DNA from: Mesorhizobium sp. ORS 3359
GTDB lineage: Bacteria > Pseudomonadota > Alphaproteobacteria > Rhizobiales > Rhizobiaceae
Direction: 5' to 3'
NCBI GenBank assembly: GCA_000824845.1
Contig: CCNC01000179.1
Span: 62,001 to 126,000 of the forward strand
Length of the DNA stretch: 64,000 nucleotides
The notes under the pieces were generated by a model. It saw nothing but the letters and a program-made list of their open reading frames with translations. It searched no databases and was not told the DNA's origin. Below, in pieces: positions 1,569 to 48,855 of this stretch. The position numbers were made by a program, and so were the translations under genes. Positions within the stretch are counted from its first letter, which is position 1. Each line of letters opens with the position of its first letter.

Positions 1569-3017
1569 ATGCTGTCCTCGGCAAGGCTGCTTCAACGCCA
1601 GAAGCAATCTATGGTGGCATCGCCTCAGCTCATTGAGTCGATTCGCCTGTTGCAACTTGCGCGCGCCGAACTGCATCAATTCGTGGAGCAGGAACTCGAG
1701 AAAAATCCGCTTTTGGAGCCAGCTTCAAACGACAGTGAGGCTCTTGGCGACGTGCCGATTTCGGCAGACCAGTCCACCAGCGCACGCGAAAAAGACATGG
1801 ATAGGCCGACGAGCGCGGCGGCCGCAGAGCGACCGGGGGAATGGAAATCGCTACGCAATACGACGAACACCCCTGCGGATAGTCGCCCTGCCCTGGACGA
1901 GTTCGCCGCCTGCACCGAAACATTGCACGACCACGTCGCTGGTCAGATCGCGCTCACTGCATTCACACTACAGGAGCGGCTGATTGCCGGCGAGCTCGCA
2001 GCCCATCTGGACGATACGGGCTATCTTCGGGTGGACCTTGTGGAACTGGCCGGCAAACTGAACGCCCGCGAGACGGATGTGGAACGGGTTCTCGCAACCT
2101 TGCAGCAGTTTGATCCACCGGGAATTTTTGCTCGCACTCTCAGCGAATGTCTCGAGATCCAGTTGCGTCAGCGAGACCGGTTCGACCCGGCAATGGCCGC
2201 CTTGGTTGCCAACCTTGAGATGGTTGCCAGACGCGATTTCCAGGCGTTGAAGCAGCACTGCTGCGTCGATGAAGAAGACCTTCTCGAGATGTTGCATGAA
2301 ATCCGTGCGCTCGATCCTAAGCCTGGCAACCGATTCCAATCCGGAGCGCCGGAATCCATCATACCCGACGTCTGGGTCACGCCCTCGCCCGGAGGTGGAT
2401 GGCAGATCGAACTAGATCCGGACGCATTGCCCAAGGTTTTGATCAACCAAACCTATTTCGCCGAAATCTCGCGACACGCCGTCCAGAATCCGAAAGATCA
2501 AGCGTTTCTGAACGAATGCCTGCAAAACGCGAATTGGTTAATCCGCAGCCTGGATCAGCGTGCCAAGACGATTCTTAAAGTTGCGACTGAAATCGTGCGC
2601 CAACAGGATGCCTTTTTCGAACATGGCGTGGCCCATCTGCGGCCTCTCAATCTCAGGACTGTCGCTGAGGCGATCAACGTGCATGAATCGACGGTGAGCC
2701 GGGTGACCTCGAACAAGTATATGCTTACCCCACGCGGGGTGTTCGAACTGAAGTATTTTTTCACCGTCGCGATTGCCTCCTGCCAAGGCGGTGACGCGCA
2801 CTCCGCCGAAGCTGTCCGGCATCGGATCAAAGCGATAATTGCTCAAGAATCGCCCGGTGACGTGCTTTCCGACGACGACATCGCCGTCCGGCTGAAGGAA
2901 ACCGGCATCAATGTAGCGCGCCGCACCGTCACAAAATATCGCGAGGCGATGAACATCCCCTCCTCCGTGGGACGGCGCCGGGAAAAGCGGCTATGGCTCA
3001 TTGGCGATCAAGATTGA
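1569..3017 (+). CDS. rpoN: RNA polymerase sigma-54 factor (symbiotic copy RpoN2)
   Basis: A 482-aa sigma-54 factor that directs RNA polymerase to -24/-12 promoters and needs activators such as NifA or DctD. The N-terminal activator-interaction region is glutamine- and leucine-rich (RLLQRQKQSM, ending in EKNPLLEP). A variable acidic linker follows (about residues 55-105), then the core-binding region, the helix-turn-helix (about 345-385) and the RpoN box ARRTVTKYRE near the C-terminus. All regions are present, so it should be functional. It sits downstream of prxS, probably in one transcript. A short copy of its 3' end lies at about 14528-14601. Confidence 0.95.
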   Translation: MLSSARLLQRQKQSMVASPQLIESIRLLQLARAELHQFVEQELEKNPLLEPASNDSEALGDVPISADQSTSAREKDMDRPTSAAAAERPGEWKSLRNTTNTPADSRPALDEFAACTETLHDHVAGQIALTAFTLQERLIAGELAAHLDDTGYLRVDLVELAGKLNARETDVERVLATLQQFDPPGIFARTLSECLEIQLRQRDRFDPAMAALVANLEMVARRDFQALKQHCCVDEEDLLEMLHEIRALDPKPGNRFQSGAPESIIPDVWVTPSPGGGWQIELDPDALPKVLINQTYFAEISRHAVQNPKDQAFLNECLQNANWLIRSLDQRAKTILKVATEIVRQQDAFFEHGVAHLRPLNLRTVAEAINVHESTVSRVTSNKYMLTPRGVFELKYFFTVAIASCQGGDAHSAEAVRHRIKAIIAQESPGDVLSDDDIAVRLKETGINVARRTVTKYREAMNIPSSVGRRREKRLWLIGDQD

Positions 3018-3072: not shown

Positions 3073-4155
3073 TCACGGCGCCGGCCGGGGTGTCGTCGCG
3101 ACGCTCGGCGGCAAGGTTGGATAGGTTACGTTCGGCTGGTCCCCGGTGAGCGCCTGTAGGAAAACGGTGATCTTGTCGACTTCCTCAGGGCTCAGCTGCG
3201 TACCAAGCTGGGTCGTCCCCATCACCGCCACGGCTTGCTCTAGATCCCATGCATGGCCGCTGTGAAAGTAGGGGGCGGTGAGTGCGACGTTCCTTAAAGT
3301 AGGGACCTTGAAGACATAGTCATCATCGACCTTCCGTGTCACCTCAACGCGTCCCTTGTCGTCAGGCGGCAGGAACTCCCAGCCGGGCTTTTCGACCACC
3401 CCAAAAGGAGCGTACATGCTCCCACCGATGTTGATGCCGTTGTGGCAAGACGAGCATCCTTTGTCGACGAAAAGCCTGAGCCCCTCCTTCTGTTCAGTGG
3501 TGAGTGCGTTTTCGTTACCCTCGAGATACTTGTCGAAGGGTGCGTTGGGCGTGATCAGCGTCGCCTCGAACACGGCGATGGCTCTCGCGATGTTGTCATA
3601 TCTGAGGGGGTCGATTTCATCAGGGAAGGCTTTGCCGAACGCCTCAACGTACCCAGGAATGCCCTTGAGCTCTTCGACGGCGTGCCCGGGAGTGGTCCCC
3701 ATCTCCGTCGGATTGGAGATCGGGCCGCCGGCCTGCTCCATCAGATCCGCTGCCCGTCCGTCCCAAAACTGAGCGATGTTGAACACCGCGTTGAATACAG
3801 TTGGCGCATTGCGGCCGCCGCGCTGCCAGTTATGGCCAATAGAGGTGGAGCGGCCATCGCCGCCAGCACGGCCGATTTGATGACAGGTGTTGCAGCTGAT
3901 GTTGTGAGCTTGCGAGAGCCGCGGTTCGAAATAGAGCATCTTGCCCAACTCGAGCTTCTCTAAGGTCGCCGGATTGCCGTCCAGGTCTGCAGCACGCTTG
4001 GGAATAGGGCTAAACAGCGATCTCGCAACGTCCAGCAGGTTGTCCTGCCCCATGGCTGTGGAGGCAAGCAGGCAGCCTGTGAGTGCAGCAAATGAAAAGG
4101 CCGATCCCGCCGCCAAGCGGAAGAAGGAGACAATAAATGTCTTCACGAAGCCCAT
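3073..4155 (-). CDS. Di-haem cytochrome c peroxidase (CcpA/MauG family)
   Basis: A 360-aa periplasmic di-haem peroxidase that reduces H2O2 with electrons from cytochrome c. An N-terminal hydrophobic signal (about residues 5-36, ending ASTAMGQ) is followed by two c-haem sites, CNTCH at about 88-92 and CSSCH at about 234-238. The first ends a low-potential domain and the second begins the electron-transfer domain. Length is usual for the family. It converges on rpoN with 55 bases between the stops and reads away from the decayed nifQ behind it. A role in peroxide defence during symbiosis is inferred only. The ribosome site is weak. Confidence 0.88.
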   Translation of the reverse strand: MGFVKTFIVSFFRLAAGSAFSFAALTGCLLASTAMGQDNLLDVARSLFSPIPKRAADLDGNPATLEKLELGKMLYFEPRLSQAHNISCNTCHQIGRAGGDGRSTSIGHNWQRGGRNAPTVFNAVFNIAQFWDGRAADLMEQAGGPISNPTEMGTTPGHAVEELKGIPGYVEAFGKAFPDEIDPLRYDNIARAIAVFEATLITPNAPFDKYLEGNENALTTEQKEGLRLFVDKGCSSCHNGINIGGSMYAPFGVVEKPGWEFLPPDDKGRVEVTRKVDDDYVFKVPTLRNVALTAPYFHSGHAWDLEQAVAVMGTTQLGTQLSPEEVDKITVFLQALTGDQPNVTYPTLPPSVATTPRPAP

Positions 4156-4260: not shown

Positions 4261-4605
4261 TTACATGAATGCCCAAGACGTCGAGCGATTTAGCAAGCGC
4301 GGCCTGGCTCTAACGAGACTGCTATCATCCCAGCCGTTCACAACACGCGCGGAGTGGATATCACCCTCTTCCGGGCGGAAGTAAGCATCGAAGTCCCTAA
4401 AGTCTTGACAGGCGTGCGCCGGAAGATGGGTTGCGAGCAAGCGGCTGATCTCGTGACGATCGAAAAGGCCGAGGTCTTGCCGGAGACAGTCTGTGTGCAT
4501 GGCGCGGTGCGCAATGGTTTTGGCGAACGAAGTGCTGAGGGGTGGCCCGGCCGGGGCTGACCAAAGATTGAGTCTCTTTCCGGTCGTATCATCCTTTTCC
4601 TCCAT
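4261..4605 (-). pseudogene. nifQ: Decayed nifQ copy with the cysteine motif deleted
   Basis: The reading frame matches the intact NifQ at 14631-15254 over its second half: QDLGLFDRHEISRLLATH against QDLGLFNRAELSRLLATH, and FRPEEGD against FGPEEGE. About 30 residues between these blocks are missing, including most of the C-X4-C-X2-C-X5-C cluster motif. Only the CQDFRDFD remnant remains, and its last cysteine has changed. The N-terminal half does not align and the C-terminus runs into unrelated sequence. It cannot bind the NifQ iron-sulfur cluster and is most simply a dead duplicate. Confidence 0.75.
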
Positions 4606-4794
4606 TTGGGTTTTGCGAGCGGTCGCGTTTCTTGCCTGCGGTGATCACATCGAATGGAAGACAACAAGGATCATGCCATTTCAGGCCAACCGAGATTTTT
4701 CTCAAATTTGCAGCGGTTACGCTCGAAGAGCCTGTCTCGGTCGAGCTACAGTTGTCGCCAATCTGACAGAATCGACAGCGGAAAAGTCGGGAGT

Positions 4795-7936: not shown

Positions 7937-8490
7937 CCAACCACCTCTTCGCCCTCTCGTTCAGCGGCTGCGATGATGGACTGCGGATCGTCGAGCATAT
8001 CGGCGGGTGCCTTGTCGGCCAGCCAGCCGTTCGTCGACATGAACCAGAAGGCACGTTGCCACGCAGACAGCCGGGGAGGAAGTGCCCCGAGCGCCTTCTT
8101 GATCGTGGGGTGCGGCCGCCCCTCGCGGAACTGGAAAGCCGGGAAATACTCCTTGCCGCGGTGCTGGACCGAGAAGATGTTGCCGGCCTTTTTCCAGCGC
8201 GCTGCGGTCGCATAGGGGTTCTTGGTCTTCAGGCCCGCCTGTGCTCCGATCTCGGCGCTCGTGAGCTGGGGGACCTCCGAGACGAATCGATCACGCAGCT
8301 CGAGGTTGTCCAAGGCCAGTGCTCCACGCGCGTCGGCGAGTTCATCGGGCAGGAGGACCTCCGCGAGCTTGCCGATCGTCGACTCGAGGCGTGTTTCGTC
8401 AAGCGTGGCACTCACGCGGACAACTATTTCAAGGAAGGAGCGCACCGCGCTTCGGCGTCCTTCGTCTAAGTCGGGCTTGAGTTGAAGCAC
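7933..8490 (-). CDS. Antitoxin-like partner of the RES toxin, probably missing its natural N-terminus
   Basis: The frame encodes 185 aa from a GTG. The C-terminal part ([18 protein letters not shown] through [16 protein letters not shown]) has the look of the toxin-binding domain of Xre/MbcA/ParS-type antitoxins. The middle ([22 protein letters not shown]) looks like a helix-turn-helix. Its first residues have no ribosome site. An overlapping frame upstream (8466-8744) ends [15 protein letters not shown] and reads naturally into this frame if one base is gained or lost near 8490. I infer a frameshift within one longer antitoxin gene; the shorter product could still be made from the GTG. Confidence 0.6.
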
Positions 8491-8744
8491 GACGGAATGC
8501 CGATGTCAGCGGCCGCGGCAGCGAGATCCACGAATCCTGTCGAGGTCGCAGTTGCTGGCGCCGCCACGGCCGGCGCTGTCTCTTGAAGCGCGCGACGGAT
8601 CGCCCCGACAAGAAGCTCGCGATCGTCGGAGACGGAGCGGCTGGGGCGCTCCTGCGCCCTAGCGCCGCCCGACGTGCGCCGTCCGGCGATCGGCGCAGGC
8701 GGCCGGTCAAACATGAGGAAAGATGAGAAGAGAGCGTCGGACAT
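8466..8744 (-). pseudogene. Likely N-terminal part of the frameshifted antitoxin
   Basis: This frame begins [15 protein letters not shown] and contains [18 protein letters not shown], then [15 protein letters not shown]. It runs out of frame a few codons after the start of the downstream antitoxin frame. The order and overlap suggest it is the N-terminal end of that protein. An IS3-family fragment ends just upstream, so its native promoter may also have been lost. Confidence 0.45.
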
Positions 8745-8789
8745 AACATCACGTGAGATTGAGGGGCCGAATCTAGCCAGTGACGGTAA

Positions 8790-9060
8790 TAACTCGCGCG
8801 GCTGACGCCAGCGAGCCAGCACATTCGATCGATGTTGAATTCGCCTTGCGACAGGCCGGCCGTCATCTTTTCGATGACTTTGAAGATCCCGTCTCGCCAG
8901 GAGCGCTGCTCCGGCGCTGATCTTCCTCGAAGTGCCGCAAGGCTTCGCGAAAAAAAATCGAGATCGAGCTGCTGTTGCCCGACTTTCTGCTCTAATTCCC
9001 TGATCCGGCGCCCGGCCGTGGTCGGAGCCTTTTCCTGAGACGCCGGCGGATCGACTGCGC
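8790..9060 (-). mobile_element. Fragment of an IS3-family element (orfA end and orfB start)
   Basis: The translation contains [20 protein letters not shown], the leucine-zipper end of an IS3-type OrfA. It is followed by [20 protein letters not shown], typical of the beginning of OrfB, then YRHW. It stops there, so most of the transposase is absent. It is joined directly to a second degraded IS3-family element and shares one accidental long frame with it. The edges are approximate. Confidence 0.65.
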
Positions 9061-10134
9061 TCTGCAATGGCAAGTCCCCGTCAACTCCTCCCGCCACTCT
9101 CGCCGGCCGGCCGCGCCGACGTGACTTCAGGTTACCACGAAGCCTGAGGCGCCCGTTGAAGCTCTCGACGAAGGCATTCTGCATGGGCTTACCCGGCGCG
9201 ATATAGTGCCATTCGACGCCGGTCTGCTGGCACCAGCGCAGGACCGCCATGGGGGTCAGCTCTGTGCCGTTGTCCGAAACGATCATGGCGGGCCGCCCGC
9301 GCCAGCGCATGATGGTGTCGAGCTCGCGCACAACGCGCAGGCCCGACAGCGAGGTGTCGGCGATCAGCGCCAGACACTCCCGCGTATAGTCGTCGACCAC
9401 GGCGAGCACCCGGAAGCGACGGCCGTCGGTGAAGGTGTCGGAGACGAAGTCCAGGCTCCAGCGGGAGTTGGCGCAATCCGGAACGAGCATCGGTCTGCGT
9501 GTGCCCAGCGCTCCCTTGCGGCCGCCACGCTTGCGGACCTGGAGCTTCTCCTCCCGGTAAAGCCGCCGCAGCTTCTTCTGGGTCATCACGATGCCCTGCC
9601 GGTCCAGCATGACGTGGATCCCCTGCGGTAACCGAACCGCCGGCGCTCTGCCGCCACAGCCTTCATCGCCTCGCGCAACGTAGCGTCGCCCGGACGGATG
9701 GCGGTGTAGCGCACGGTCGAACGATCGATCCTCAGGGCCTGGCACGCCCGACGCTGGCTCACCCCATACGCCTTGCAGGCATGAGCCACCGCCTTCCGGT
9801 TCGCATCGGGCGTCACCATTTTTTTGCGGCAACATCCTTCAGGATCGCGTTGTCGAGCATCTCCTCGGCCAGGAGCTTCTTCAGCCGGGCGTTCTCATCT
9901 TCCAGAGCCTTCAGGCGACGGGCGTCGGACACCTCCATCCCGCCGCCTTGAACTTGTAGAAGGTCGCTGCCGAGATGCCATGCTTGCGGCAGACATCAGC
10001 CGTCTTCGCGCCCGCCTCCTGCTCCTTCAGCATCCCGATGATCTACTCTTCCGTGAACCGTGATGGTCGCATCGTCCGTCTCCGTGATCGACGGACTCTA
10101 CCCAAATCTGGAGGAAGTTCAGGGTCTCAGGTCA
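9060..10134 (-). mobile_element. Degenerate IS3-family insertion sequence (IS407-like)
   Basis: Read on the minus strand, OrfA (MRPSRFTEE, stop, IIGMLKEQEAGAKTADVCRK) has an in-frame TAG near its start and a frameshift after FYKFKA. OrfB starts with [20 protein letters not shown] and shifts frame after RRFGYR. It continues as [20 protein letters not shown] and includes the DDE-region motifs [19 protein letters not shown] and VSDNGTELT with [10 protein letters not shown]. The C-terminus is replaced by the neighbouring IS fragment. A right end starting TGACCTGAGACCCTGAAC is visible at 10134. It cannot encode an intact transposase. Confidence 0.75.
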
Positions 10135-14279: not shown

Positions 14280-14300
14280 GGGTTAACAGCCCGTTAACCC
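14280..14300. promoter_or_regulatory. Perfect inverted repeat GGGTTAAC-N5-GTTAACCC
   Basis: Two perfect 8-base arms are separated by AGCCC. There is no following T-run, so an operator is more likely than a terminator. It lies about 190 bases upstream of the 78-aa minus-strand gene. Confidence 0.45.
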
Positions 14301-14527
14301 AATGCGAAACGGCCTACCTTGTGGAGGGCAGGCAGTTCTTGGGTTCTACGTTTTCAGCGTGTTTTCTGTGGGGTTGCCTAATCTCTCTAAGAGACTACAC
14401 GTGACCCGAATTGGTGCCAGGGACAAGCCCAATGCCCGCTCGCTGGGTTTACCAAACATATAGTCGACCCGACCTCCGAAACAAGAGGTCTCCACTCGAG
14501 CCAAGTCGACCCCCGCGCACCTCGATC

Positions 14528-14601
14528 AGACGATGAACATCCCCTCCTCCCGTGTACGTCGTCGGGAAAAGCGTCTACGGCTCGATGGCGATCAAGATTG
14601 G
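14528..14601 (+). pseudogene. rpoN: 3'-end fragment of a second rpoN
   Basis: About 70 bases from GATGAACATCCCCTCCTCC to GATCAAGATTG closely match the last codons of rpoN at about 2946-3016. The match covers the IPSS, RRREKR and GDQD residues at the C-terminus, with scattered substitutions. The natural stop is altered (ATTGG instead of ATTGA). Upstream similarity fades at once, and the RpoN box is not readable. It ends 30 bases before the stop of intact nifQ. Confidence 0.75.
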
Positions 14602-14630
14602 CCGCGTTCTCCCACTGACGAAAGCGGCTC

Positions 14631-15254
14631 TTAATCCAATGCGATTTCATTTTTGATTCGTGCGAGGCGATTTTCGCCTTCCTCCGGACCGAAGCAGCTT
14701 GCGAAATCATTGCATTCCCGGCAACTGGGCGCGGTGCATAGCGAAAACCCTTCGGCCTCACAAAGCTTGCGGTAAAGGTACTTCTTCCATTTCATGTTTT
14801 GGGTGTTACCGGCCGCCAGGGTCGGAAAATGCGTGGCAAGCAGGCGACTGAGCTCGGCGCGATTGAAAAGTCCAAGGTCCTGCCAGAGATGGTCATTGCG
14901 CATGGCGCGCCGGGCGATGATCTTGGCAAACCGGACGCTTGCCGGGTCGCCCGGCAAGGCATGGGCCAGGAGCAGCTCGCGCAAAAGTTCTTCCTCCGGG
15001 TCCGGCTCGGGCTCGCCCACCTCTTCCAGGGCGAAGGCCTTGAAGGGGAAAGTGGGGAAGCTGCGGGCCAGGACATCGCGCAGCTCGGCGCGCGAAAGAC
15101 CGGTTGCCTCCGTCGCCGTCGCCTCGCCGGCCTCGACTTCCTCGAGCGCACACGAAAGCACGCAGGCAAGCACATGCTGATCAAACTCCAGCTTCAACCG
15201 CGGCGATTGGCGAGCGCAAAGGCGGCCACAGTGGTGGGCGAGCATGGGTTTCAT
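14631..15254 (-). CDS. nifQ: NifQ, molybdenum donor for FeMo-cofactor synthesis
   Basis: A 207-aa NifQ. The protein carries a molybdenum-containing iron-sulfur cluster and supplies Mo for FeMo-co assembly on NifEN. The signature C-X4-C-X2-C-X5-C is intact near the C-terminus (CTAPSC, REC, NDFASC). The conserved LWQDLGLFNRAELSRLLATH lies before it (about residues 122-143). The ATG at 15254 has CAGGAGA directly upstream. It starts 18 bases after the stop of the luciferase-like monooxygenase gene, so it is the last gene of the P450 operon, whose promoter looks NifA-dependent. A broken copy lies at 4261-4605. Confidence 0.93.
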   Translation of the reverse strand: MKPMLAHHCGRLCARQSPRLKLEFDQHVLACVLSCALEEVEAGEATATEATGLSRAELRDVLARSFPTFPFKAFALEEVGEPEPDPEEELLRELLLAHALPGDPASVRFAKIIARRAMRNDHLWQDLGLFNRAELSRLLATHFPTLAAGNTQNMKWKKYLYRKLCEAEGFSLCTAPSCRECNDFASCFGPEEGENRLARIKNEIALD

Positions 15255-15272
15255 TCTCCTGGTTTTGTCCCA

Positions 15273-16325
15273 TCAACCTCCCTTATGAGCGAGCGACTTG
15301 TTGACTGCCGGGATGATCTTGTCTCCCCAGAGCTCGATCTGGCGCAGCATCGTCTTTTGGTCGAAATCCCCCAACTGGGTCTGAATTGCGATCTGGTTGG
15401 GTTTTAAGACATCGATCTCTTCCAGTAGGCGATCGATCACGCGATTCACGCTGCCGATCGGCAGGTTTCGGCGCATCGTGGCGAATGACATATCTTGCTG
15501 CGTTGGCGTTTCTTTTAGCAGATAGCCATCCAGGCTCTGCTGGCGGCGCTGATGCAATGCTTCAGACAGCCGGCGCTGGAAGCGGGCGTTGTCGAGATAG
15601 CTATTGATCTCTGCCTCGTCCTCGCTGGCATAGCAGCAACGTAGCAAAGATATCTTGGCGTCCGTGACATTCTTGCCTTCGACAGCCGCCGCCTTCTCGA
15701 TGGCTTCGCGCAGCGTGCTCAAAGCCTCCAAGCCGTTGTGGAATGCCGTCACAAAAAGATTGTGTCCCTCGCGATAGGATCGGCCCATGCGGGCCGTCCC
15801 ACAGGCGATCCAGATCGGCGGGGTCGGCTTCTGGACAGTGCGCAGCGAAATCGCCGTCGGGGGAATGTTCTCATACTGGCCGTCGTGCTCGAAGATGTTC
15901 TGGTTGAGGCCCTTCAGAAGGATGTCCAAATATTCCGAAAAGACCGCCGGCGCCTCATCGATATTGACGCCGAAGCGCTCGAACTCGAATTGCTGGTATC
16001 CCGAGCCGATGCCAAGCTCGAGGCGGCCGTTCGCAACAATGTCCGCGAACCCGATCTCGGAAAGCAGGCGCTGCGGTTGATAGAGCGGCAGCACGCACAC
16101 GGCAGTGCCAAGGCGAATGGTACTCGTCACGCCGGCGCAGTGCGCCACCATCATCAAGGGCGAGGGAACAAGGCTATAATTGTTGAAGTGGTGCTCCGCG
16201 AACCACGCCGTATCGAAGCCGGCCTGTTCCGAAACGACCACCTGTTCGATGGAGTTGCGGATCACGCTCTCGCAAGACTGATGATAACCACGCTGGGCCG
16301 CCAGGATGAAGGATGCGAATTCCAT
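15273..16325 (-). CDS. Luciferase-like flavin-dependent monooxygenase
   Basis: A 350-aa LLM-class oxidoreductase using reduced flavin and O2. It starts MEFASFILAAQRGYH, with AAGGAA just upstream of the ATG at 16325. The fold signatures are FDTAWFAEHHFNNYSLVPSP (about residues 40-58), TIRLGTAVCVLPLYQPQRLL (about 71-90), and ELGIGSGYQQFEFERFG. It is the fifth gene of the P450 operon and lies directly before nifQ. NGR234 is known to carry a comparable symbiotic-plasmid cluster (y4v genes around CYP127A1) with a luciferase-family member. The substrate is unknown. Confidence 0.85.
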   Translation of the reverse strand: MEFASFILAAQRGYHQSCESVIRNSIEQVVVSEQAGFDTAWFAEHHFNNYSLVPSPLMMVAHCAGVTSTIRLGTAVCVLPLYQPQRLLSEIGFADIVANGRLELGIGSGYQQFEFERFGVNIDEAPAVFSEYLDILLKGLNQNIFEHDGQYENIPPTAISLRTVQKPTPPIWIACGTARMGRSYREGHNLFVTAFHNGLEALSTLREAIEKAAAVEGKNVTDAKISLLRCCYASEDEAEINSYLDNARFQRRLSEALHQRRQQSLDGYLLKETPTQQDMSFATMRRNLPIGSVNRVIDRLLEEIDVLKPNQIAIQTQLGDFDQKTMLRQIELWGDKIIPAVNKSLAHKGG

Positions 16326-16631
16326 GGTGTTTCCTTGTCTGTGGAGGGAGTGGGCACGGTCGGGAGTTGCGCTAAGTACCCACCCAAGGCTTGGCCGCGG
16401 CCTCGATCTTGCCCTTGGCGGCGGCGTGGTCATGCGGCAAGGCTTTCGGCGGTTGCAGGCGCACCGAGCGGTTGGAACTGCTTCGACAGCGATGAGGACC
16501 GACGTTTCGTCTCGCCGAGGACGACATCTTCGGTCACAGCGGCGCGAGCGCGGCGCCCAAGCGGACCCAGAAGCCTTGGTCGAACTCGGCTTCGATGAGC
16601 CGCGGCCGGTCGCCTGGCGAATAGTCGAGAC
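16326..16631. other. Spacer within the P450 operon
   Basis: About 300 bases between the double SDR gene and the monooxygenase gene. Minus-strand frames here are arginine-rich and have no domain. I see no promoter, terminator or inverted repeat. Confidence 0.35.
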
Positions 16632-18230
16632 TCAACATGCGGCCTCCGCAAAATACTCGTTATCGAGTTCGCAGGCGTTTCCTGCATCACCGAACGAGGT
16701 CCAGCCGCCGTCCACGTAAAGGATGGAGCCGTTGACGTATGAGGCGGCGGACGAAGCCAGGAAGAACGCTGCGTCAGCGACGTCTTTCGGCTGTCCCAGC
16801 CTGCCCATCGGGATGCGTCGTGCGATCGTTTTCATGTCGATGCGGCCGACCTTCGCCAACTGAGCAATGCCCGGCGTGCAAATGAAGCCAGGAGCGACTG
16901 TGGCCGTCCGTATGCCGACCGGCCCGAGTTCGGCCGCCAGGCATCGGGTCAGAATGTCAAGCCCCGCCTGGGAGGCACCGTAGGCATGGCGCGGCGCGAA
17001 AGGCAGAAAGCTGTTGATCGATCCGATGTTGAGGATCACGCCGCCAGCGCGCATCGCCTTGATCGCTTCGCGAGCACAGGTGAAGGCCCCGGTAAGATTG
17101 ACATCCAAGACGTGTTGGATGTGTTCCGGTATTTGTTCGATTCCCAACACCAAAGTGTCGGCGGCAGCAGCACCGTTGACGAGCACATCGATGCGCCCGA
17201 AGCGCGCCCGCAGCTCCTCGAATAGCGCTACCACCTCGCTCTCGACGGCCACATCCACGCCTTTGGCCGGGTTGTTGCCGCGGAGCCATGCAGCGAGTTC
17301 TGCCGCTGCAGCGCCATCTCTGTCAGCAATCACAACGGTATCGCCGTTTGCTGCAAAGCGGCGAACGACGGCCGCGCCTATGCCGTTCGCGCCGCCGGTG
17401 ACGAGCACGATTCGCGCGTCGGTGCGTTCGGCCGGACAGCAGAGTTCGGCTTGGGGTATCCCATTCACCTGCGGGTGCGCATCCCCCGGCTGGTTGAATG
17501 ACATCCAGCCTCCGTCGACCGCCAGCACTGAACCGGTGATGTAGCGTGCCTGCGAGCTGGTCAGAAAACGCACGGCGAGGGCGATCTCGTCCGGGCGCGC
17601 CAAACGCCCCAGCGGCACGCGGCGGCGCACGGCCGCTAGGTCCACTTTGCCCGCGCGTTCCAGCTCCGCCACCATCGGCGTGCGCACGTAGCCGGGCGCT
17701 ACCGCCGTCACGCGAATGCCGCGAGAAGCCCACTCACATGCAAGCGACTTCGTCAACGAGATCAGGCCCGCCTTCGAGGCCGCGTAGGCATTGCGCTTGG
17801 GATTGCCTACGACACCCGCCATCGAAGCGACGTTGACGATGGCGCCGCCCCGCCTCATGCGCCTCGCCGCTTCGCGGGCCATGACGAACGGTCCAATCAA
17901 GTTTACCGCCAGGGCGAGGCGGAAGGCGTCGACACCAGTCTCGACGCTCGCAGCCATCGTGGGTCCCATCGCGGCGTTGTTGATGAGGACGCTGATCTGG
18001 GCGAACTGTGCTTCGATCCGACCGTAAAGCGCGAGCACATCCTCCTCCCGCGAGACGTCGCACACGAGGCCGAGATGCGGGTGGCCGAGACGGAGGGCCA
18101 GTTCAACGACACCGCTGCCAGGAAGGTCTACCGCAACGACAGTGTCTCCATCCCTGGCAAAAATTTCGACCAGGGCACGCCCGATCCCACCCGCGGCGCC
18201 CGTAATGATGACAATACGTCCTGTCTGCAT
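16632..18230 (-). CDS. Tandem (double-domain) short-chain dehydrogenase/reductase
   Basis: A 532-aa fusion of two SDR units, each of which would use NAD(P)H to interconvert a carbonyl and an alcohol. Unit 1 (about residues 1-245) has ITGAAGGIGRA, NNAAM and the catalytic YAASK. Unit 2 (about 275-525) has VTGGANGIGAA, the NxxxA-like NGAAA and a serine before HAYGASQAG. There the catalytic lysine of YxxxK is glutamine, so unit 2 may not act as a normal SDR. GGAG lies upstream of the ATG at 18230. NGR234 y4vI is a double SDR of similar size. The enzyme sits third from the end of the P450 operon. Confidence 0.85.
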   Translation of the reverse strand: MQTGRIVIITGAAGGIGRALVEIFARDGDTVVAVDLPGSGVVELALRLGHPHLGLVCDVSREEDVLALYGRIEAQFAQISVLINNAAMGPTMAASVETGVDAFRLALAVNLIGPFVMAREAARRMRRGGAIVNVASMAGVVGNPKRNAYAASKAGLISLTKSLACEWASRGIRVTAVAPGYVRTPMVAELERAGKVDLAAVRRRVPLGRLARPDEIALAVRFLTSSQARYITGSVLAVDGGWMSFNQPGDAHPQVNGIPQAELCCPAERTDARIVLVTGGANGIGAAVVRRFAANGDTVVIADRDGAAAAELAAWLRGNNPAKGVDVAVESEVVALFEELRARFGRIDVLVNGAAAADTLVLGIEQIPEHIQHVLDVNLTGAFTCAREAIKAMRAGGVILNIGSINSFLPFAPRHAYGASQAGLDILTRCLAAELGPVGIRTATVAPGFICTPGIAQLAKVGRIDMKTIARRIPMGRLGQPKDVADAAFFLASSAASYVNGSILYVDGGWTSFGDAGNACELDNEYFAEAAC

Positions 18231-18551
18231 GTTGAGGACTTCTCCCGCGCTCCCTTGAGCGATTTCAGCCAATCAATTTTGAGCGGCAAAAGATGCGTCG
18301 CGCTAATGCAGCGCGTCCTGGCGAAGGCCAGTTGCGGACCCGGAAAGACCACGCAGCGATCCGGCAGCTGTCCAACTTCCGAATAAGTCGCCGAGGCTGC
18401 TGCGGGACCGGCGAAGGACAGGAGCTTGCCTCGATGGTCGGCGCTGCCAGGTCCCGCAAATTTGTGGACACCGTGTCGTCGGCGGGCTCGTGGGAGAGAT
18501 CCGATCGCTCACGGCGTCGCGGGCAGAAAGGCAATGCAATTTGGCGCCCCT
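18231..18551. other. Spacer between the NTF2-like and double SDR genes
   Basis: About 320 bases without a supported gene. The ribosome site of the SDR gene lies at its downstream end. No clear hairpin or promoter was seen. Confidence 0.35.
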
Positions 18552-19193
18552 TCACCGGGCCGTCTTTCGCCGGGATCGCTGTAGCATCGCAAAGTTGTCA
18601 GGGCCTTCAGTCTCCTCGGCGGATGCGGCTGTATCGTTCGACGCCTCCGAAGGGTCATGGCGAGAAGGAATGCGACGCTTTCCGAACCTGTAGACCGGAT
18701 CGTCCGGATGCGGTGCTCCGATCGGCCGGCGCGGGCCGAACCGTTCTGCCTCAACGCCCGCTGGTGGGAGCTGCTCCTCTATCCAATCGTAGACCACCGT
18801 CCGTTCGGCAATCCGCCACTCAGCTTCCCTCTTGTGAAACAGATCGCAGTAACGGCCGCACAGGAGCGTCTGGCGCACGTCTCCGTCTTGATCTGGTGCG
18901 CGTTGTAGCGCGGTGAAATAGCTCTCGACCGCAGCCTCTGACGAACTGATGAATTCGATCAGGATGTTGGTGATCTGGTGGATGTTGCGGGGTCCGGCCT
19001 TGAAGACGCCGAGTGCAAACTCGATGAACCCCTCTGCAGGACCGCAATAGGCCCCGTGATTGTCATGCGCATCGGGCCAGTACGCGCTGCGTAGCGCCGC
19101 TTCATCGGCGCGGTCGATCCCGCGGCAGTATCGATAGAGGCAGTCGCGGATCGCCTCACGGTCGATTAGTTGGGCAATTTTCGTCTGTTCCAT
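18552..19193 (-). CDS. NTF2/SnoaL-like protein
   Basis: A 213-aa protein whose first 165 residues have the SnoaL-like/NTF2 cone fold seen in dehydratases, isomerases and ring-hydroxylating dioxygenase small subunits. The start is typical: [20 protein letters not shown], then [20 protein letters not shown] (about residues 27-46), which holds the tyrosine/tryptophan-aspartate-histidine patch. The C-terminal 45 residues are polar and may be disordered. The frame stays open upstream to 19409 without good support, so the ATG at 19193 is a judgement. In the operon it lies between ferredoxin and the double SDR, suggesting a step on a P450 product. Confidence 0.75.
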
Positions 19194-19405
19194 CGGCTCT
19201 GCCACGGATTCTGTGATCGGAAGAGGTGTTTTGCGAACCGCACCTTGGCGTTTGCGCATTCTGCGGGGCATCTCGATGCCGCAGATGCCCCTGCGCAGTT
19301 GGACGAGGACGGTGGTAGAACGGAAGGCGCCTGGCTCGGGTCCCGTTTGGGCCGCTTGGGCGATCCCTTTCATGCCCGCCGGACTCTTGGTGGAATGAGT
19401 CAGGT

Positions 19406-19615
19406 TCAACTCGTGCTGCAGGGTTCCCGGTCGAGTTTAAGTGCACGTTCGGGACAGGATCGCGCGCCCCGCGATGCAGTCAGTTCCTCCCCTTCCGCAA
19501 CTTCGATGTTACCGGGCAGGATGTAACCGGCGTCATCGAGCTTGAAGATGTGTGGCGCGTGCGCCGCGCATCGCGCGTGACCCTGGCATTTGGCATTTTG
19601 GACGATGATGCGCAT
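19406..19615 (-). CDS. Small [3Fe-4S]/[4Fe-4S]-type ferredoxin
   Basis: A 69-aa ferredoxin of the kind that feeds electrons to bacterial P450s. Cysteines occur in CQGHARC (residues 9 and 15) and in RSCPERAL (about 54). This leaves three usable ligands in the CxxHxxC...C...CP pattern, as in 3Fe-4S partners of P450s. GGAGG lies ahead of the ATG at 19615. It follows the P450 gene by 47 bases, so the P450 is its likely partner. Confidence 0.87.
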
Positions 19616-19662
19616 GGCGCTGCCTCCATTGTCTTTGTACCTCGGCTCGGGGCGGGGCTTGG

Positions 19663-20877
19663 TCAGGACCAGTCTAGAATCAGATTTTCGATTCCGAACA
19701 CATGGCCGCCAGAGGTGATGGGCGCCGTACCGTTCTTGATCCGGAAGGCGGGGATGCGCGCCAGCCACTCCTCCAGCCCAACGACGATCTCGCGTCGGGC
19801 AAGATGTGAGCCAAGGCAACGGTGGGGACCATAGCCAAAGGTGGCATGGCGGTTGTCCTCTCGTGCCAGATCGACCGTGTTGGGGCATTCGAATTCCGCC
19901 GGGTCGCGGTTGGCGATCATCGTGGCGCAGGAAACATAATCTCCCTTGCGGATCGGCGCGCCTTCGAAGTCGATATCTTTCGTTGCCACGCGGATCAACT
20001 GAACGGTCGGATAGGCGCGCAGCAATTCTTCAGCCGCGGCCACGATCCGGCCTGGTTCGCTGCGCAGCAATTCCTGATCCTTGAGGTTGCGCGCAAGATA
20101 GGCCAGGTCAAAGCCTATGGCTGCTGCAACAGTGTCGAGCCCGGCAACAAAGACAAGCACGCCGACGCCGCGTACTTCCTGTTTCGTCAGGCGGCGGCCC
20201 TCAACCTGTGCCTGCACGACGAACGTCATGAAATCATCAAGCAGGTCATTGCGGCGGGCGGCTGCAAGTTCATCAATGAAGGATACGATCGTCCGGGCCG
20301 CGGCCGGCCGTTTCACATCGTCGCCGTGGAGCAGATCTCTCCCCCATCCGACAAATGTGTCGATTCGGTCATCCGGGAGCCCTAGGAGATGAAGGAAGAT
20401 GTTTACCGTGAACGGAAATGCGAAATCCTTCATGACATCGCAGCTTGTGCCCGATGCGGCGATCCCGTCGATGAGCCTGATTGCCCGCTCACGGACAGCC
20501 GGCTCCAATGCCGCCACCCGTTTTGGCGAAAACAGCGGATTGAGCAATGAGCGAAAGGCGCCATGGGCCGGGGGATCGAGTTCAAGCGGGATCATCGGCC
20601 AGTTTTCACCCAGGGCGGAGGCAAAGATGCTGCGATGGCTGGAAAAAGTTTCGGTGTCCTGCAGCACCCGGCGCTGGTCGCTGGCGCGGGTGATCACCCA
20701 GGTGCCCCTGCCGTCGCGCGTGTTGAGGGGTGAATAAAAGATAGGCGGGCCGGAATGGACGCAAGCGACTGCCGCGTGGGGATCCCCGTTGGGAGTCGGT
20801 GACATGCCCGGCGAAGTGAACAGGCTAAAGTCCCTCACCATTTCGGGCGGGACATGATCTGGAACCGGATTTTCCAT
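19663..20877 (-). CDS. Cytochrome P450 (CYP127-like)
   Basis: A 404-aa soluble bacterial P450. The I-helix oxygen-activation motif is VFVAGLDTVAA (about residues 231-241). The K-helix ExxR is EELLR. The haem loop FGYGPHRCLGSHLAR holds the axial cysteine. The ATG at 20877 is supported by AGGAG. It is the first gene of a minus-strand operon with ferredoxin, NTF2-like, double SDR, luciferase-like monooxygenase and nifQ. The gene order recalls the NGR234 symbiotic plasmid cluster containing CYP127A1. A sigma-54 promoter and a NifA site lie 290-445 bases upstream. The substrate is unknown; a terpenoid or other hydrophobic metabolite is a guess. Confidence 0.92.
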   Translation of the reverse strand: MENPVPDHVPPEMVRDFSLFTSPGMSPTPNGDPHAAVACVHSGPPIFYSPLNTRDGRGTWVITRASDQRRVLQDTETFSSHRSIFASALGENWPMIPLELDPPAHGAFRSLLNPLFSPKRVAALEPAVRERAIRLIDGIAASGTSCDVMKDFAFPFTVNIFLHLLGLPDDRIDTFVGWGRDLLHGDDVKRPAAARTIVSFIDELAAARRNDLLDDFMTFVVQAQVEGRRLTKQEVRGVGVLVFVAGLDTVAAAIGFDLAYLARNLKDQELLRSEPGRIVAAAEELLRAYPTVQLIRVATKDIDFEGAPIRKGDYVSCATMIANRDPAEFECPNTVDLAREDNRHATFGYGPHRCLGSHLARREIVVGLEEWLARIPAFRIKNGTAPITSGGHVFGIENLILDWS

Positions 20878-21170
20878 TTGGCCTCTTCTCCTGAACGCTG
20901 GGCGTTCATGCGCTAGATTGAGATTGCAGCCCGATCTCAAGGTCGATTGGCCAGCACCCGGTAAGTCCCAGCTCTAGCGTGTCGTTGCGCGATGCAACCA
21001 AACTGCGCACCAGCGCAAGAGATCGGTTGCGCATTCAAGCAGCAAAGGCTCCCTGCTTGGTGCCGCGGTTCTAAAGCGTAACCCACTGGTTATCCCCTTG
21101 AAGTTGAGAGACTGGTCAATCGTCGCTGAGCTCCGTGACGCATTGCTGCTTGCGCCCCGAAATCATCTAA

Positions 21171-21185
21171 GCAAGTTGCGTGCCG
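21171..21185 (-). promoter_or_regulatory. Sigma-54 (-24/-12) promoter of the P450-nifQ operon
   Basis: On the minus strand the sequence is CGGCACGCAACTTGC, matching GGCACG-N4-TTGC with correct GG-GC spacing. Only the base before GG differs from TGGCAC. It points towards the P450 gene, with a leader of about 280 bases, and a NifA site lies about 120 bases upstream. Confidence 0.75.
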
Positions 21186-21306
21186 GCTCGGCCGTATCGA
21201 TGGTGCTGCACCGGTCTATGGCTCAGCCACCACTGGAACCGCCGCTCATAGGATGACCACATGTCTCCCGGCAAAACGTCCGACAACCGACACCTGCTGT
21301 CAGCTT

Positions 21307-21322
21307 TGTCGAATACCCGACA
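21307..21322. promoter_or_regulatory. NifA upstream activator sequence (TGT-N10-ACA)
   Basis: TGTCGAATACCCGACA, with a near-palindromic TGTCG...CGACA. It lies about 122 bases upstream of the minus-strand sigma-54 promoter, within the usual range for NifA looping. Confidence 0.75.
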
Positions 21323-21509
21323 CGGGGACTGCAGCACACTCTTTCTGGGGCTCTTCTGCCGATTTGTCATAATGTTGAGACTCTTTGGTCGCCGACGCGC
21401 CAGCATTGCGGTCGTCGCCGAGTACCGCAGCCATTCGGCTTTCTCACCTCGCAAACGACGGGAGGCCGGAGGCCTTGATTGATTGGCCGATCGAGGACGA
21501 TTGGCCGTA

Positions 21510-22317: not shown

Positions 22318-23115
22318 TCAGACGAAGTTAAAGTCCCATGCGCTCAACCCAAGCCCGGCCAGATTCGCGACGCTTTGGACATTACTAAGATGAGCAAAAT
22401 CGTCGGCATGGTTATCGGAGGTGACGTAGGCCAGATTCCCTGAATTGGTTAACGGATTATAGTAAACGATAATGTCGCCGGTATGCTCATTGGAGATCGC
22501 ATCCGCAGCTTGGGAGCCGTTGCTGAACGAGTTGGTGAGCACGACGACATGCTCGCCGTTCGCGCCCGCAGCGTCGCCGCTGTAGAAGGTGTCAACTGGA
22601 TGGCCAGGCCGTGAGCTGGCGTGGTTGACGAAGTTTGCGCCAAAACCGTCGCTACCGAGGCCGACCGCATCGAAGGCCAAAGTGTCGTCCGCCGGATTGA
22701 AATCCAAGATCGAGGTATTGTCGGGGTCCGGCCCGAAACGCGGGTCATATCCAGGGATCGGGTTGTGGAATTGGAACACGAACGTGTCGCTGCCTGTGCC
22801 CCCGGTCAGAAAATCCCTGCCGTCACCAACAAAGAGGGTGTCGTTACCCGGACCCCCGTAGAGCTTGTCATTATCCTCAGCAGTGATGTGCGGTCCGTCT
22901 CGCCCGTTGTCGCCGTAGAGGTAGTCATTGCCCTCCTCGCCAAACACATGATCATTGCCTGTGCCACCGAAGACTCGGTCATTGCCAGGCCCCGCCGAAA
23001 TGGAATCGTTACCCCCAAGAGCGTCAATCCAGTCATTGCCGTCGGGATCTGTGATCACATCGTCACCATTGGTGCCGAAGAGGGCATTGTCGCGCGGACT
23101 ACCATGGATAGCCAT
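22318..23115 (-). CDS. nodO: NodO-like secreted calcium-binding RTX protein
   Basis: A 265-aa RTX protein. The N-terminal half carries nonapeptide-type GGxGxDxx calcium repeats (for example [20 protein letters not shown] and [19 protein letters not shown], about residues 35-112). The C-terminus ends WDFNFV, like an uncleaved type I secretion signal, and there is no N-terminal signal peptide. NodO of Rhizobium leguminosarum is a secreted RTX protein of similar size that supports nodulation. The call rests on the fold plus a nod box about 65 bases before the start. AAGGAG precedes the ATG at 23115. No type I exporter is in the window. Confidence 0.78.
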
Positions 23116-23177
23116 CAGAGACACTCCTTAATCATGCGTCCCCACGCCACCTGAACCTTTTCATATCTCTATTCAGG

Positions 23178-24025: not shown

Positions 24026-25087
24026 TCATGCAGCGGTCGGACCGGGAATGCGTGGCAGGGTCTCGGCCAGAAACCGCCAGTCCTCGCGCTCGCCTTCGCC
24101 TTCGCGGCGCTTGCCAAAGAACTGGACGATCATCTTGCCATCGGCGTCGTAGGCTTCGAGCGAGGTGACGTGACCGTCCTTGGTCGGCTTGCGAACGGCC
24201 CAGATCTCGCGGACGTGATGGGTCCCGAGATGCAGGTGGAAGGTCTCGTCGAGCACATTGATCCACGGCCCGATTGTTTTGACCCACTTGATTGGACCGG
24301 AATGGATCTGGATGCAGCCACGATTGCCTACAAAGCACATGATCGGCATTTCATCTTCGGCCGCCTGTTGAAACATGGCGCCGATAGCGTCCTTTTCGAG
24401 CGCCCAAGCGTAGACCTCGCCGACCATACGCACCGCCTCGCGGCGGCTGAGCTTGAGTCTCTTCAACATGTCGAAGAACTGATGCACGTCCGTCAGCTGG
24501 CTCCAGCACTCGCGTAGATCCTCCACCGTGGCGGCTCGGTCAGGAACCTCTGCGTCATCGCTGGCTCCGCTCGCCTTGAATACTACGATCGGCTCCTGGT
24601 TCGAGGATTCCAGCTCAGCCACCAGCTTCTGATAAGCATCGAGATTTGAGGCGGGCCCGAGTTGCACCTTGTGCATCGCCTTGCCGGCGGCATCAAAGAA
24701 TTGCAGGCTACGGCTAATGTCCTTGCCATTGCGCTTCTCGACGGCAAAGCCATGCGCCCAAACTTTCGGGAAGATGCGCAAGTCGATGTCGTCGCCAAGT
24801 ACCAGAGCATGCTTGTTGCCGGTGACCACCTTCTCATAGACGCCGATCTTTTCGTGCACGGCACTTTCGTTGCGGGTATGCGCCACCACCTCGCCGACCG
24901 CTTCGAGGCCGGTCAGCAGATCATTGACGCGCGGCTCGACACGAATCGCGCCCAGACCGCAATGCGCGGCGACCAATTCCGCTTCCGATATACCCAGTCG
25001 GGCGGCGAGATCGTGCTCACGGATCTTTGGATTGTCTTGCTGCGCCCGCCGGATTTCGTGCGGCGATAGTCTCTCACGCTGGTCCAT
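24026..25087 (-). CDS. hmuS: Haem-degrading/utilisation protein HmuS (HemS/ChuS family)
   Basis: A 353-aa cytoplasmic protein of the HemS/HmuS family, which takes haem from the HmuTUV importer and opens or stores it. The two repeated halves are visible: the first around GDDIDLRIFPKVWAHGFAVE (about residues 98-117), the second around RGCIQIHSGPIKWVKTIGPW and VLDETFHLHLGTHHVREIWA. The second half contains the conserved histidine-rich strand. Length is as usual. No hmuR or hmuTUV gene is nearby, so the importer must be elsewhere. Upstream it faces the iscN promoter region; a damaged sigma-54-like site lies on its side. Confidence 0.9.
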   Translation of the reverse strand: MDQRERLSPHEIRRAQQDNPKIREHDLAARLGISEAELVAAHCGLGAIRVEPRVNDLLTGLEAVGEVVAHTRNESAVHEKIGVYEKVVTGNKHALVLGDDIDLRIFPKVWAHGFAVEKRNGKDISRSLQFFDAAGKAMHKVQLGPASNLDAYQKLVAELESSNQEPIVVFKASGASDDAEVPDRAATVEDLRECWSQLTDVHQFFDMLKRLKLSRREAVRMVGEVYAWALEKDAIGAMFQQAAEDEMPIMCFVGNRGCIQIHSGPIKWVKTIGPWINVLDETFHLHLGTHHVREIWAVRKPTKDGHVTSLEAYDADGKMIVQFFGKRREGEGEREDWRFLAETLPRIPGPTAA

Positions 25088-25420: not shown

Positions 25421-25506
25421 ATTCGCCTGAACAAGCGCAAAAAAGTTCCGCACGCTCATCAATGATTTATGTGAGAGTTCAGTGGGAACCGAGGCCGGAC
25501 ACTTTG

Positions 25507-48716: not shown

Positions 48717-48855
48717 TCTATTGTCTCCGGCGTTTTGACGCAGAATGTCCTTGCTTCGGACCGGGCTCGAAGCGATCAGAGCAACGACATATTTCTGCGA
48801 AGCAACCGCTTTCCGCGGGATATAAAAATGTTTTTTACAGGCGACTTAATTCTAG

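What the first reader, a model, noticed from the sequence alone, without database searches (positions are those of the whole stretch)
14631..21322. NifA/sigma-54-linked P450 operon that ends in nifQ
Seen: on the minus strand the genes P450, ferredoxin, NTF2-like, double SDR, luciferase-like monooxygenase and nifQ run in one direction, with nifQ only 18 bases after the monooxygenase. Upstream is CGGCACGCAACTTGC (21185 to 21171) and a NifA site TGTCGAATACCCGACA (21307-21322). Known: a related cluster with CYP127A1 exists on the NGR234 symbiotic plasmid, and NifQ supplies Mo. Inference: bacteroids turn on an oxidative pathway for a small molecule together with Mo handling. The product is not known to me.
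Basis: partly seen in the sequence, partly recalled or inferred. Interest (0 to 1): 0.82.

Follow-up and report, generated by a model that had tools for sequence, protein, structure and literature searches.

The report
Patchwork nodule enzyme operon with nifQ
This is a known kind of nitrogen-fixation-regulated enzyme operon of root-nodule bacteria that appears to be a patchwork of two degradation gene clusters, with the molybdenum gene nifQ now sitting right behind it.

Summary
Six intact minus-strand genes (P450, ferredoxin, NTF2-like, double SDR, luciferase-like monooxygenase LLM, nifQ) lie behind a NifA site and a -24/-12 element at the stated bases. Only P450-ferredoxin (47 bp) and LLM-nifQ (18 bp) are tight junctions.
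The operon kind is known: nifQ-dctA1-y4vGHIJ of NGR234, and the NifA-dependent P450 promoter of M. loti R7A.
What comparison adds: (1) P450 and ferredoxin match a sphingomonad-type catabolic cluster; NTF2, SDR and LLM match an island found elsewhere in Rhizobiaceae genomes, where a flavin reductase and a 97-aa gene lie between them. The operon's two large gaps hold relics of those genes (shown through relatives). (2) nifQ most likely reached the tail stepwise: relatives show LLM-fdxB-nifQ, then LLM-fdxB relic-nifQ, then 18 bp here. In NGR234 nifQ is at the head. (3) A NifA promoter pair precedes 59 of 74 testable rhizobial copies and 0 of 4 testable sphingomonad-type copies.
So nifQ most likely gained a NifA promoter rather than shares the chemistry. 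The enzymes most likely run a camphor-like oxidation of a cyclic terpenoid or steroid-like compound. That is inference; the substrate is unknown.

The parts
21307..21322 (-). NifA upstream activator site TGTCGGGTATTCGACA (TGT-N10-ACA)
   Evidence: 136 nt from its start to the start of the -24/-12 17-mer
21170..21186 (-). sigma-54 -24/-12 element CCGGCACGCAACTTGCT
   Evidence: the same or nearly the same core in many Mesorhizobium copies
19663..20877 (-). cytochrome P450, CYP127 type, 404 aa (FGYGPHRCLG and AGLDT motifs; motif meaning recalled)
   Evidence: 76% to the NGR234 copy
19406..19615 (-). small ferredoxin, 69 aa, C-x2-H-x2-C ... C-P (3Fe-4S class recalled)
18552..19193 (-). NTF2/SnoaL_4 protein, 213 aa, distant relative of LinA and scytalone dehydratase
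18231..18551 (-). gap holding the relic of a flavin reductase gene (homology shown through relatives)
16632..18230 (-). double-domain SDR, 532 aa; second domain YxxxQ instead of YxxxK
16326..16631 (-). gap holding the relic of a 97-aa gene of unknown function (homology shown through relatives)
15273..16325 (-). luciferase-like (LLM) flavin monooxygenase, 350 aa
14631..15254 (-). nifQ, 207 aa, C-x4-C-x2-C-x5-C intact
4336..4674 (-). degenerate second nifQ copy near rpoN2 (stop inside)
1569..3017 (+). rpoN2, behind a peroxiredoxin gene (prxS) at 962-1498

Best explanation
A NifA/sigma-54-driven oxidative operon of the y4vGHIJ kind. Supported by sequence: it is a chimera. The P450-ferredoxin pair matches a sphingomonad-type catabolic cluster. 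The NTF2-SDR-LLM block is a reduced copy of a catabolic island found elsewhere in Rhizobiaceae genomes, with relics of its flavin reductase and 97-aa gene in the gaps. nifQ came to lie at its tail in this lineage by decay and loss of fdxB. Inferred: the P450 (fed by the ferredoxin) hydroxylates a cyclic terpenoid or steroid-like compound in nodules, the SDR's first domain oxidises the alcohol, the NTF2 protein does an elimination or isomerisation, and the LLM does a Baeyer-Villiger-type oxygenation with FMNH2 from a reductase encoded elsewhere. nifQ rides along and is made when NifA is active.
For: Promoter pair at 59 of 74 testable rhizobial loci; 7 more have only the -24/-12, 5 only the UAS; 0 of 4 testable sphingomonad-type loci, 0 pairs in their 81 kb. 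P450 tree: one symbiotic clade 100/98 with sphingomonad and environmental rows around it. LLM tree: one symbiotic clade 96/94 beside the island rows. Island with flavin reductase and 97-aa gene in the gap positions in 10 of 17 fetched regions. Relics: flavin reductase E<0.01 in 11 of 82 symbiotic loci, 97-aa gene in 10 of 82; the window's gaps match such loci at the same places, e.g. L014 4.8e-39 and 8.3e-55. fdxB series; tail NifQ clade 98/88. Median dN/dS of intact genes 0.13-0.27. Closest solved P450s are P450cam/CYP101. CYP127A3 listed as testosterone hydroxylase (PMC8197338, passage). An LLM with Baeyer-Villiger activity on progesterone is reported (PMC12239570, abstract and passages).
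Against: No product or substrate is shown for any copy. The gaps could hold terminators or other promoters (7 terminator-like sites, 6.9 expected). The window's own gaps gave no significant protein match. 15 of 74 testable loci lack the full promoter pair, 3 of them (Microvirga) both elements; a stricter first pattern found it in only 25 of 82 loci against 176 of 3360 random 1-kb pieces. Best solved LLM relatives are bacterial luciferases and other LLMs; 3,6-diketocamphane monooxygenase matches weakly (5.3e-7). Trees are midpoint-rooted and use hand-picked rows. Parts of the set are broken or absent in many relatives.
Confidence: 0.6

Rival explanations
1. The six genes form one functional unit: the oxidative pathway and NifQ are needed together, for example because the pathway helps molybdenum cofactor synthesis.
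For: nifQ is joined to this operon kind at the head in NGR234 and at the tail here, so the two are found together in different arrangements.
Against: In M. loti-type loci nifQ is in a separate DUF683-fdxB-nifQ unit. R. gallicum (L004) and the R. etli-group loci L052-L058 show no nifQ in the stretch held. L020, L021, L024 have nifQ but no NTF2, SDR or LLM. Mutation of nifQ is said to have no effect in NGR234, though nifQ was needed for full effectiveness in R7A (PMC3538637, passages).
Confidence: 0.1
2. The operon is in decay: NifA still drives it but the pathway no longer works as a whole; what is still selected is the P450-ferredoxin step and nifQ.
For: Flavin reductase and 97-aa gene lost. 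The second SDR domain keeps Tyr and Lys in 14 of 42 symbiotic copies against 10 of 11 island copies. Of 75 loci P450 is intact in 73, Fd 64, NTF2 54, SDR 38, LLM 45. L020, L021, L024 keep only P450, Fd and nifQ.
Against: The loci were found by P450, so its intactness is biased; plasmids NZ_CP140854.1 and NZ_CP025015.1 show the reverse, a partial unannotated P450 and a nearly full LLM match. LLM dN/dS (0.13) is lower in symbiotic than in island copies (0.27), and NTF2 and SDR are not higher either. All five enzymes of the window are intact.
Confidence: 0.25
3. nifQ has its own promoter inside LLM and is not on the P450 transcript.
For: R7A nifQ is expressed in nodules and needs nifA2, yet lacks a NifA-type promoter (PMC3538637, passages).
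Against: 18-bp junction; no -24/-12 pattern on the minus strand between 21170 and 14631; no sigma-70-like site in 14300-21500. Consensus scans are weak evidence.
Confidence: 0.15

Closest known systems
nifQ-dctA1-y4vGHIJ operon of Sinorhizobium fredii NGR234 (Fumeaux et al. 2011; I saw only the title, in reference lists; the paper is not held)
   Same: P450, NTF2, double SDR, LLM and nifQ on one strand; NifA site plus -24/-12 upstream of nifQ
   Different: There nifQ and dctA1 lead and no ferredoxin was annotated or found by tblastn. Here a ferredoxin is present, nifQ is last, and a dctA lies about 30 kb from the P450
msi332-msi331 unit of Mesorhizobium loti R7A (PMC3538637, passages)
   Same: P450 plus possible ferredoxin, NifA2-dependent in nodules
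   Different: A nifQ fragment precedes that P450; the intact nifQ is in msi338-msi337-nifQ without a NifA promoter. The msi332 strain is a cis-merodiploid, so the P450 was not inactivated
Predicted NifA regulon of Rhizobiales (PMC4999443, passages)
   Same: Names a cytochrome P450 (cpx) under predicted NifA control in several Rhizobiales
   Different: The passages give no gene order, no link to nifQ and no origin
M. amorphae and M. huakuii plasmid copies (L002, L003)
   Same: Same gene order, nifQ last
   Different: About 630 bp with an fdxB relic between LLM and nifQ; rpoN2 and prxS next to nifQ, convergent
Sphingomonad-type P450-ferredoxin cluster (L059, L063, L065)
   Same: P450 79-80% identical, ferredoxin beside it
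   Different: In L065 flanked by acyl-CoA dehydrogenases, CoA transferase, aldehyde dehydrogenase, MFS, TonB receptor; no NifA promoter pair
Catabolic island elsewhere in Rhizobiaceae genomes (e.g. L118, L122)
   Same: NTF2, double SDR, LLM in the same order; LLM 70-83% identical over the ten regions
   Different: Flavin reductase and 97-aa gene present, no P450 found; neighbours include Liv-type transport, acyl-CoA synthetases, ACADs

Membership tests
NifA/sigma-54-regulated operon | UAS TGT-N10-ACA upstream of a GG-N10-GC element | tested here: met
NifA/sigma-54-regulated operon | transcription lost in nifA or rpoN mutants | not testable with these tools
   reported only for the R7A P450 fusion
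nifQ-dctA1-y4vGHIJ operon | P450, NTF2, double SDR, LLM in this order | tested here: met
nifQ-dctA1-y4vGHIJ operon | nifQ and dctA1 at the head | tested here: not met
   nifQ last; dctA about 30 kb from the P450
CYP127 P450s | over 40% identity to a named member (rule recalled) | tested here: met
   83% to P0281, which a source names putative P450 127A1; 76% to the NGR234 copy, whose label y4vG/CYP127A1 is recalled
NifQ | C-x4-C-x2-C-x5-C motif | tested here: met
   CTAPSCRECNDFASC; motif named in PMC4085339 (passage)
Type II (LLM) Baeyer-Villiger monooxygenase | LLM with a partner flavin reductase in the operon | tested here: not met
   LLM present; the reductase is only a relic
Type II (LLM) Baeyer-Villiger monooxygenase | lactone or ester formation from a ketone | not testable with these tools
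   no assay
LinA / scytalone dehydratase-like lyases | Asp-His dyad in an NTF2 fold (dyad of LinA recalled) | tested here: met
   D27 and H72 invariant in 22 of 22 and aligned with LinA Asp and His; the fold model is weak, pLDDT 60.2

The most novel reading that the evidence does not exclude
Rhizobia built a bacteroid-specific catabolic or hormone-modifying pathway by welding a sphingomonad-type P450-ferredoxin pair to a piece of a Baeyer-Villiger-type island of their own family, then put it under NifA so that it acts on a plant terpenoid or steroid-like compound only inside nitrogen-fixing nodules. Its decay in separate lineages would track which legumes offer that compound.
Probability: 0.25. 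Interest if true: 0.78.

Novelty: new variant of a known kind. Interest (0 to 1): 0.5.

Why it matters
The y4vGHIJ-type operon is common on symbiotic plasmids and islands and linked to NifA, yet I found no substrate for it in print. Tracing its two halves to catabolic clusters gives concrete places to find the substrate (sphingomonads with the P450 and its neighbours, Rhizobiaceae with the full island). It also suggests how a nif accessory gene can gain a NifA promoter by loss of the gene in front of it.

Tried and rejected
Estrogen (edc) cluster as the sphingomonad context: one paper search, listing and abstract starts only; no sequence comparison was made. Rfam scan of the window: no match at gathering scores. 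AlphaFold model of the NTF2 protein: mean pLDDT 60.2, too weak for a fold search. A NifQ or other relic in the leader of the window's P450: best hit E 0.024, no significant match. Own NifA-type element in the LLM-nifQ gap: none in 20 of 20 loci. Phylum sample for the LLM: 3 of 398 genomes, all of the window's genus and one its own, so no help with context outside the family. Order sample for the P450: 4 of 297 genomes at E <= 1e-150. A first, stricter promoter scan gave 25 of 82 loci against 176 of 3360 random pieces; I widened the pattern to TTGA and then to any base before GG after seeing the R7A promoters. A call for the alignment with P450cam used too strict a cut-off and returned nothing.

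Literature (open-access PMC library only): searches. From titles and abstract starts none was seen to describe the chimera, the relics or the route of nifQ to the tail; Fumeaux 2011 is not held and may contain parts of this.

Correction on re-reading: my notebook calls the island genomes non-symbiotic. That was not tested, and G064 carries both a symbiotic-type copy (L091) and the island copy (L124). The wording is changed here; the odds are not.
Full report
What is there. On the minus strand the window carries P450 (20877-19663), ferredoxin (19615-19406), an NTF2/SnoaL_4 protein (19193-18552), a double-domain SDR (18230-16632), a luciferase-like monooxygenase, LLM (16325-15273), and nifQ (15254-14631), each confirmed by Pfam. 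All six frames are open and NifQ has C-x4-C-x2-C-x5-C. The NifA site and the -24/-12 element are at the stated bases. Such a pair occurs 3 times in the window, against a mean of 0.015 in 200 resampled windows. Gaps between genes: 47, 212, 321, 306 and 18 bp. No sigma-70-like site was found in 14300-21500 (1.3 expected), and terminator-like sites were at the chance level (7 against 6.9).

Organism. The genome has 6.86 Mb in 213 contigs. The P450 is 100% identical to that of Mesorhizobium sp. ORS3324 and 97% to that of M. plurifarium.

The operon kind is known. NGR234 has nifQ-dctA-P450-NTF2-SDR-LLM. Fumeaux et al. 2011 studied that operon; I saw only the title, in reference lists. In M. loti R7A a NifA-type promoter precedes a nifQ fragment and the P450 and ferredoxin genes msi332-331. 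msi332::lacZ gives 446.6 in wild type and 14.6 in the nifA2 mutant (PMC3538637, passages). The strain's normal symbiosis says nothing about loss of the P450, because the paper marks it as a cis-merodiploid in which the gene is not inactivated. A predicted NifA regulon names a P450 (cpx) in several Rhizobiales (PMC4999443, passage). In M. huakuii 7653R, whose plasmid matches this operon, nifQ is listed with fold change 36.1 in a bacteroid study; P450 is not named in its main text (PMC3973600, passages).

Survey. A scan of GTDB genomes with the P450 gave 94 relatives, of which the best 80 were kept: 75 rhizobial, 4 sphingomonad and 1 proteobacterial MAG (L065) whose P450 groups with sphingomonads. 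These last five are called sphingomonad-type here. Of the 75, by tblastn with a span and stop criterion: P450 73 intact, 2 broken; Fd 64 intact, 6 absent, 5 unknown; NTF2 54 intact, 12 broken, 8 absent, 1 unknown; SDR 38 intact, 15 broken, 14 absent, 8 unknown; LLM 45 intact, 7 broken, 14 absent, 9 unknown. The sample was drawn by P450, so the P450 figure is biased; plasmids NZ_CP140854.1 and NZ_CP025015.1 show the reverse, a partial unannotated P450 match and a nearly full LLM match. Among intact symbiotic copies median pairwise dN/dS is P450 0.17, Fd 0.25, NTF2 0.17, SDR 0.25, LLM 0.13, NifQ 0.27; for island copies NTF2 0.22, SDR 0.27, LLM 0.27 (L002, L003, L005-L007 left out as duplicates, near-copies or fragments).

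Promoter conservation. 74 of the 75 rhizobial loci had enough upstream DNA (L036 did not). 59 have the full pair before the P450, or before nifQ where nifQ-dctA1 lead. 7 have only the -24/-12, 5 only the UAS and 3, all Microvirga, neither. Random 1.5-kb pieces of the same loci, real nif promoters included, score 174 of 2220. Of the five sphingomonad-type loci 4 were testable: 0 of 4, and no pair in their 81 kb. The pattern had been widened in two steps; the first, strict one gave 25 of 82 loci against 176 of 3360 random 1-kb pieces.

Two donors. The sphingomonad-type loci carry P450 (61-81% identical) and ferredoxin; no NTF2 or LLM above 30% and no SDR above 45% identity was kept in the stretches held. 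In L065 the neighbours are two acyl-CoA dehydrogenases, an MDR-type oxidoreductase, a CoA transferase, a FAS1-dehydratase-like protein, an aldehyde dehydrogenase, an MFS and a TonB receptor. In a tree of 37 hand-picked rows the 18 symbiotic P450s and one environmental row form one clade (100/98), with sphingomonad and environmental rows around it; the root is at the midpoint. For the second half, 27 of 297 genomes of the window's family have an LLM match at E <= 1e-100, symbiotic copies included. I fetched 17 regions. Ten (L117-L125, L127) have NTF2 - flavin reductase - double SDR - 97-aa gene - LLM in this order, and no P450, NifH or NifQ match in the stretch. L132 and L133 are symbiotic copies; L126 and L128-L131 have other arrangements. 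Whether the ten genomes are symbionts was not tested; one, G064, also carries a symbiotic-type copy. Upstream lie an ADP-forming acyl-CoA synthetase, a Liv-type binding protein, an SDR and a second LLM, and, by my own reading of the sequence only, an SMP-30-like protein, Liv permeases, ACADs, an enoyl-CoA hydratase, an acyl-CoA ligase and an ene-reductase. In a tree of 38 hand-picked rows the symbiotic LLMs form one clade (96/94) beside the island rows, midpoint root.

The gaps are relics. With protein queries the flavin reductase is found (E < 0.01) just behind NTF2 in 11 of 82 symbiotic loci (window, L001-L004, the 75, L132, L133) and the 97-aa gene between SDR and LLM in 10 of 82; most matches are partial, several with stops or frame changes, while L086 keeps the 97-aa gene nearly whole. 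The window itself gave no significant protein match there. Its gap DNA does match at the same places: gap NTF2-SDR 25 loci (L014 4.8e-39, L086 6.3e-6), gap SDR-LLM 29 loci, of which two (L119, L125) are island loci matched outside the corresponding gap (L014 8.3e-55, L086 9.5e-29) (alignment). The second SDR domain keeps Tyr and Lys in 14 of 42 symbiotic copies and 10 of 11 island copies; the window has YxxxQ. The first domain keeps both in 42 of 42 and 11 of 11.

How nifQ came to the tail. Three arrangements exist: nifQ-dctA1 at the head (10 loci plus NGR234), nifQ in a separate unit convergent with rpoN2 (M. loti type), and nifQ behind LLM with a gap under 1.2 kb (20 loci). In M. loti-type loci the unit is DUF683-fdxB-nifQ (labels by my reading and by PMC3538637, which describes msi338-msi337(fdxB)-nifQ). 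Of the 20 tail loci, 14 have a gap of 445-652 bp. In 2 of these (L014, L022) a nearly full fdxB without stops lies in the gap; in 8 (L015-L019, L027, L032, L039) it is partial or broken; in 4 (L038, L041-L043) no FdxB match was found. The other 6 (L007-L012), like the window, have no fdxB match and a gap of 20-21 bp by tblastn ends, 18 bp in the window. NifQ of the window and L007-L012 forms one clade (98/88), but the deeper forks of that tree are weak. No NifA-type element lies in any of the 20 gaps. A degenerate nifQ remains near rpoN2 in the window at 4336-4674, with an integrase gene between it and the operon. I read this as gain of a NifA promoter by loss of the gene in front. How the operon first came to lie before fdxB is not resolved; L040, L080 and L086 show LLM fragments before fdxB-nifQ.

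Likely mechanism. P450cam-type enzymes are the closest solved relatives of the P450, and CYP127A3 is listed as hydroxylating testosterone (PMC8197338, passage). The NTF2 protein resembles LinA and scytalone dehydratase, with Asp27 and His72 invariant in 22 of 22. An LLM that makes testosterone acetate from progesterone by Baeyer-Villiger oxidation is reported in PMC12239570, whose reference list also names an LLM-flavin reductase pair with that reaction. Hydroxylation, oxidation to a ketone and lactone or ester formation is a coherent reading, but it is inference. It would need FMNH2 from outside the operon, and no substrate is known.

Verdict. Real, conserved and NifA-linked, of a known kind. 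New here, as far as the searches named under Tried and rejected show, are the patchwork origin, the relics and the route of nifQ to the tail. Co-regulation of nifQ is likely; a shared function is not supported.

Noticed in passing
window 8429-9835: rve integrase-core protein between nifQ and rpoN2; mobile DNA may explain why they are no longer adjacent as in M. amorphae.
   Followed up: no
window 22318-23124: RTX calcium-binding repeat protein upstream of the operon.
   Followed up: no
window 24026-25087: HemS/ChuX haem protein with a UAS plus -24/-12 pair before it at 25421 on the same strand.
   Followed up: no
window 47688-49968: Second LLM monooxygenase next to a class I/II aminotransferase.
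   Followed up: no
window 38882-39766: SIR2-like protein downstream of what I read as nifB (label mine, no family search).
   Followed up: no
window 3073-4155: Di-haem cytochrome c peroxidase downstream of rpoN2 on the other strand.
   Followed up: no
L020, L021, L024: P450-ferredoxin-nifQ only: NTF2, SDR and LLM absent, nifQ close behind.
   Followed up: partly
L126: NTF2 (63%) and LLM (80%) on opposite strands, without the SDR.
   Followed up: no
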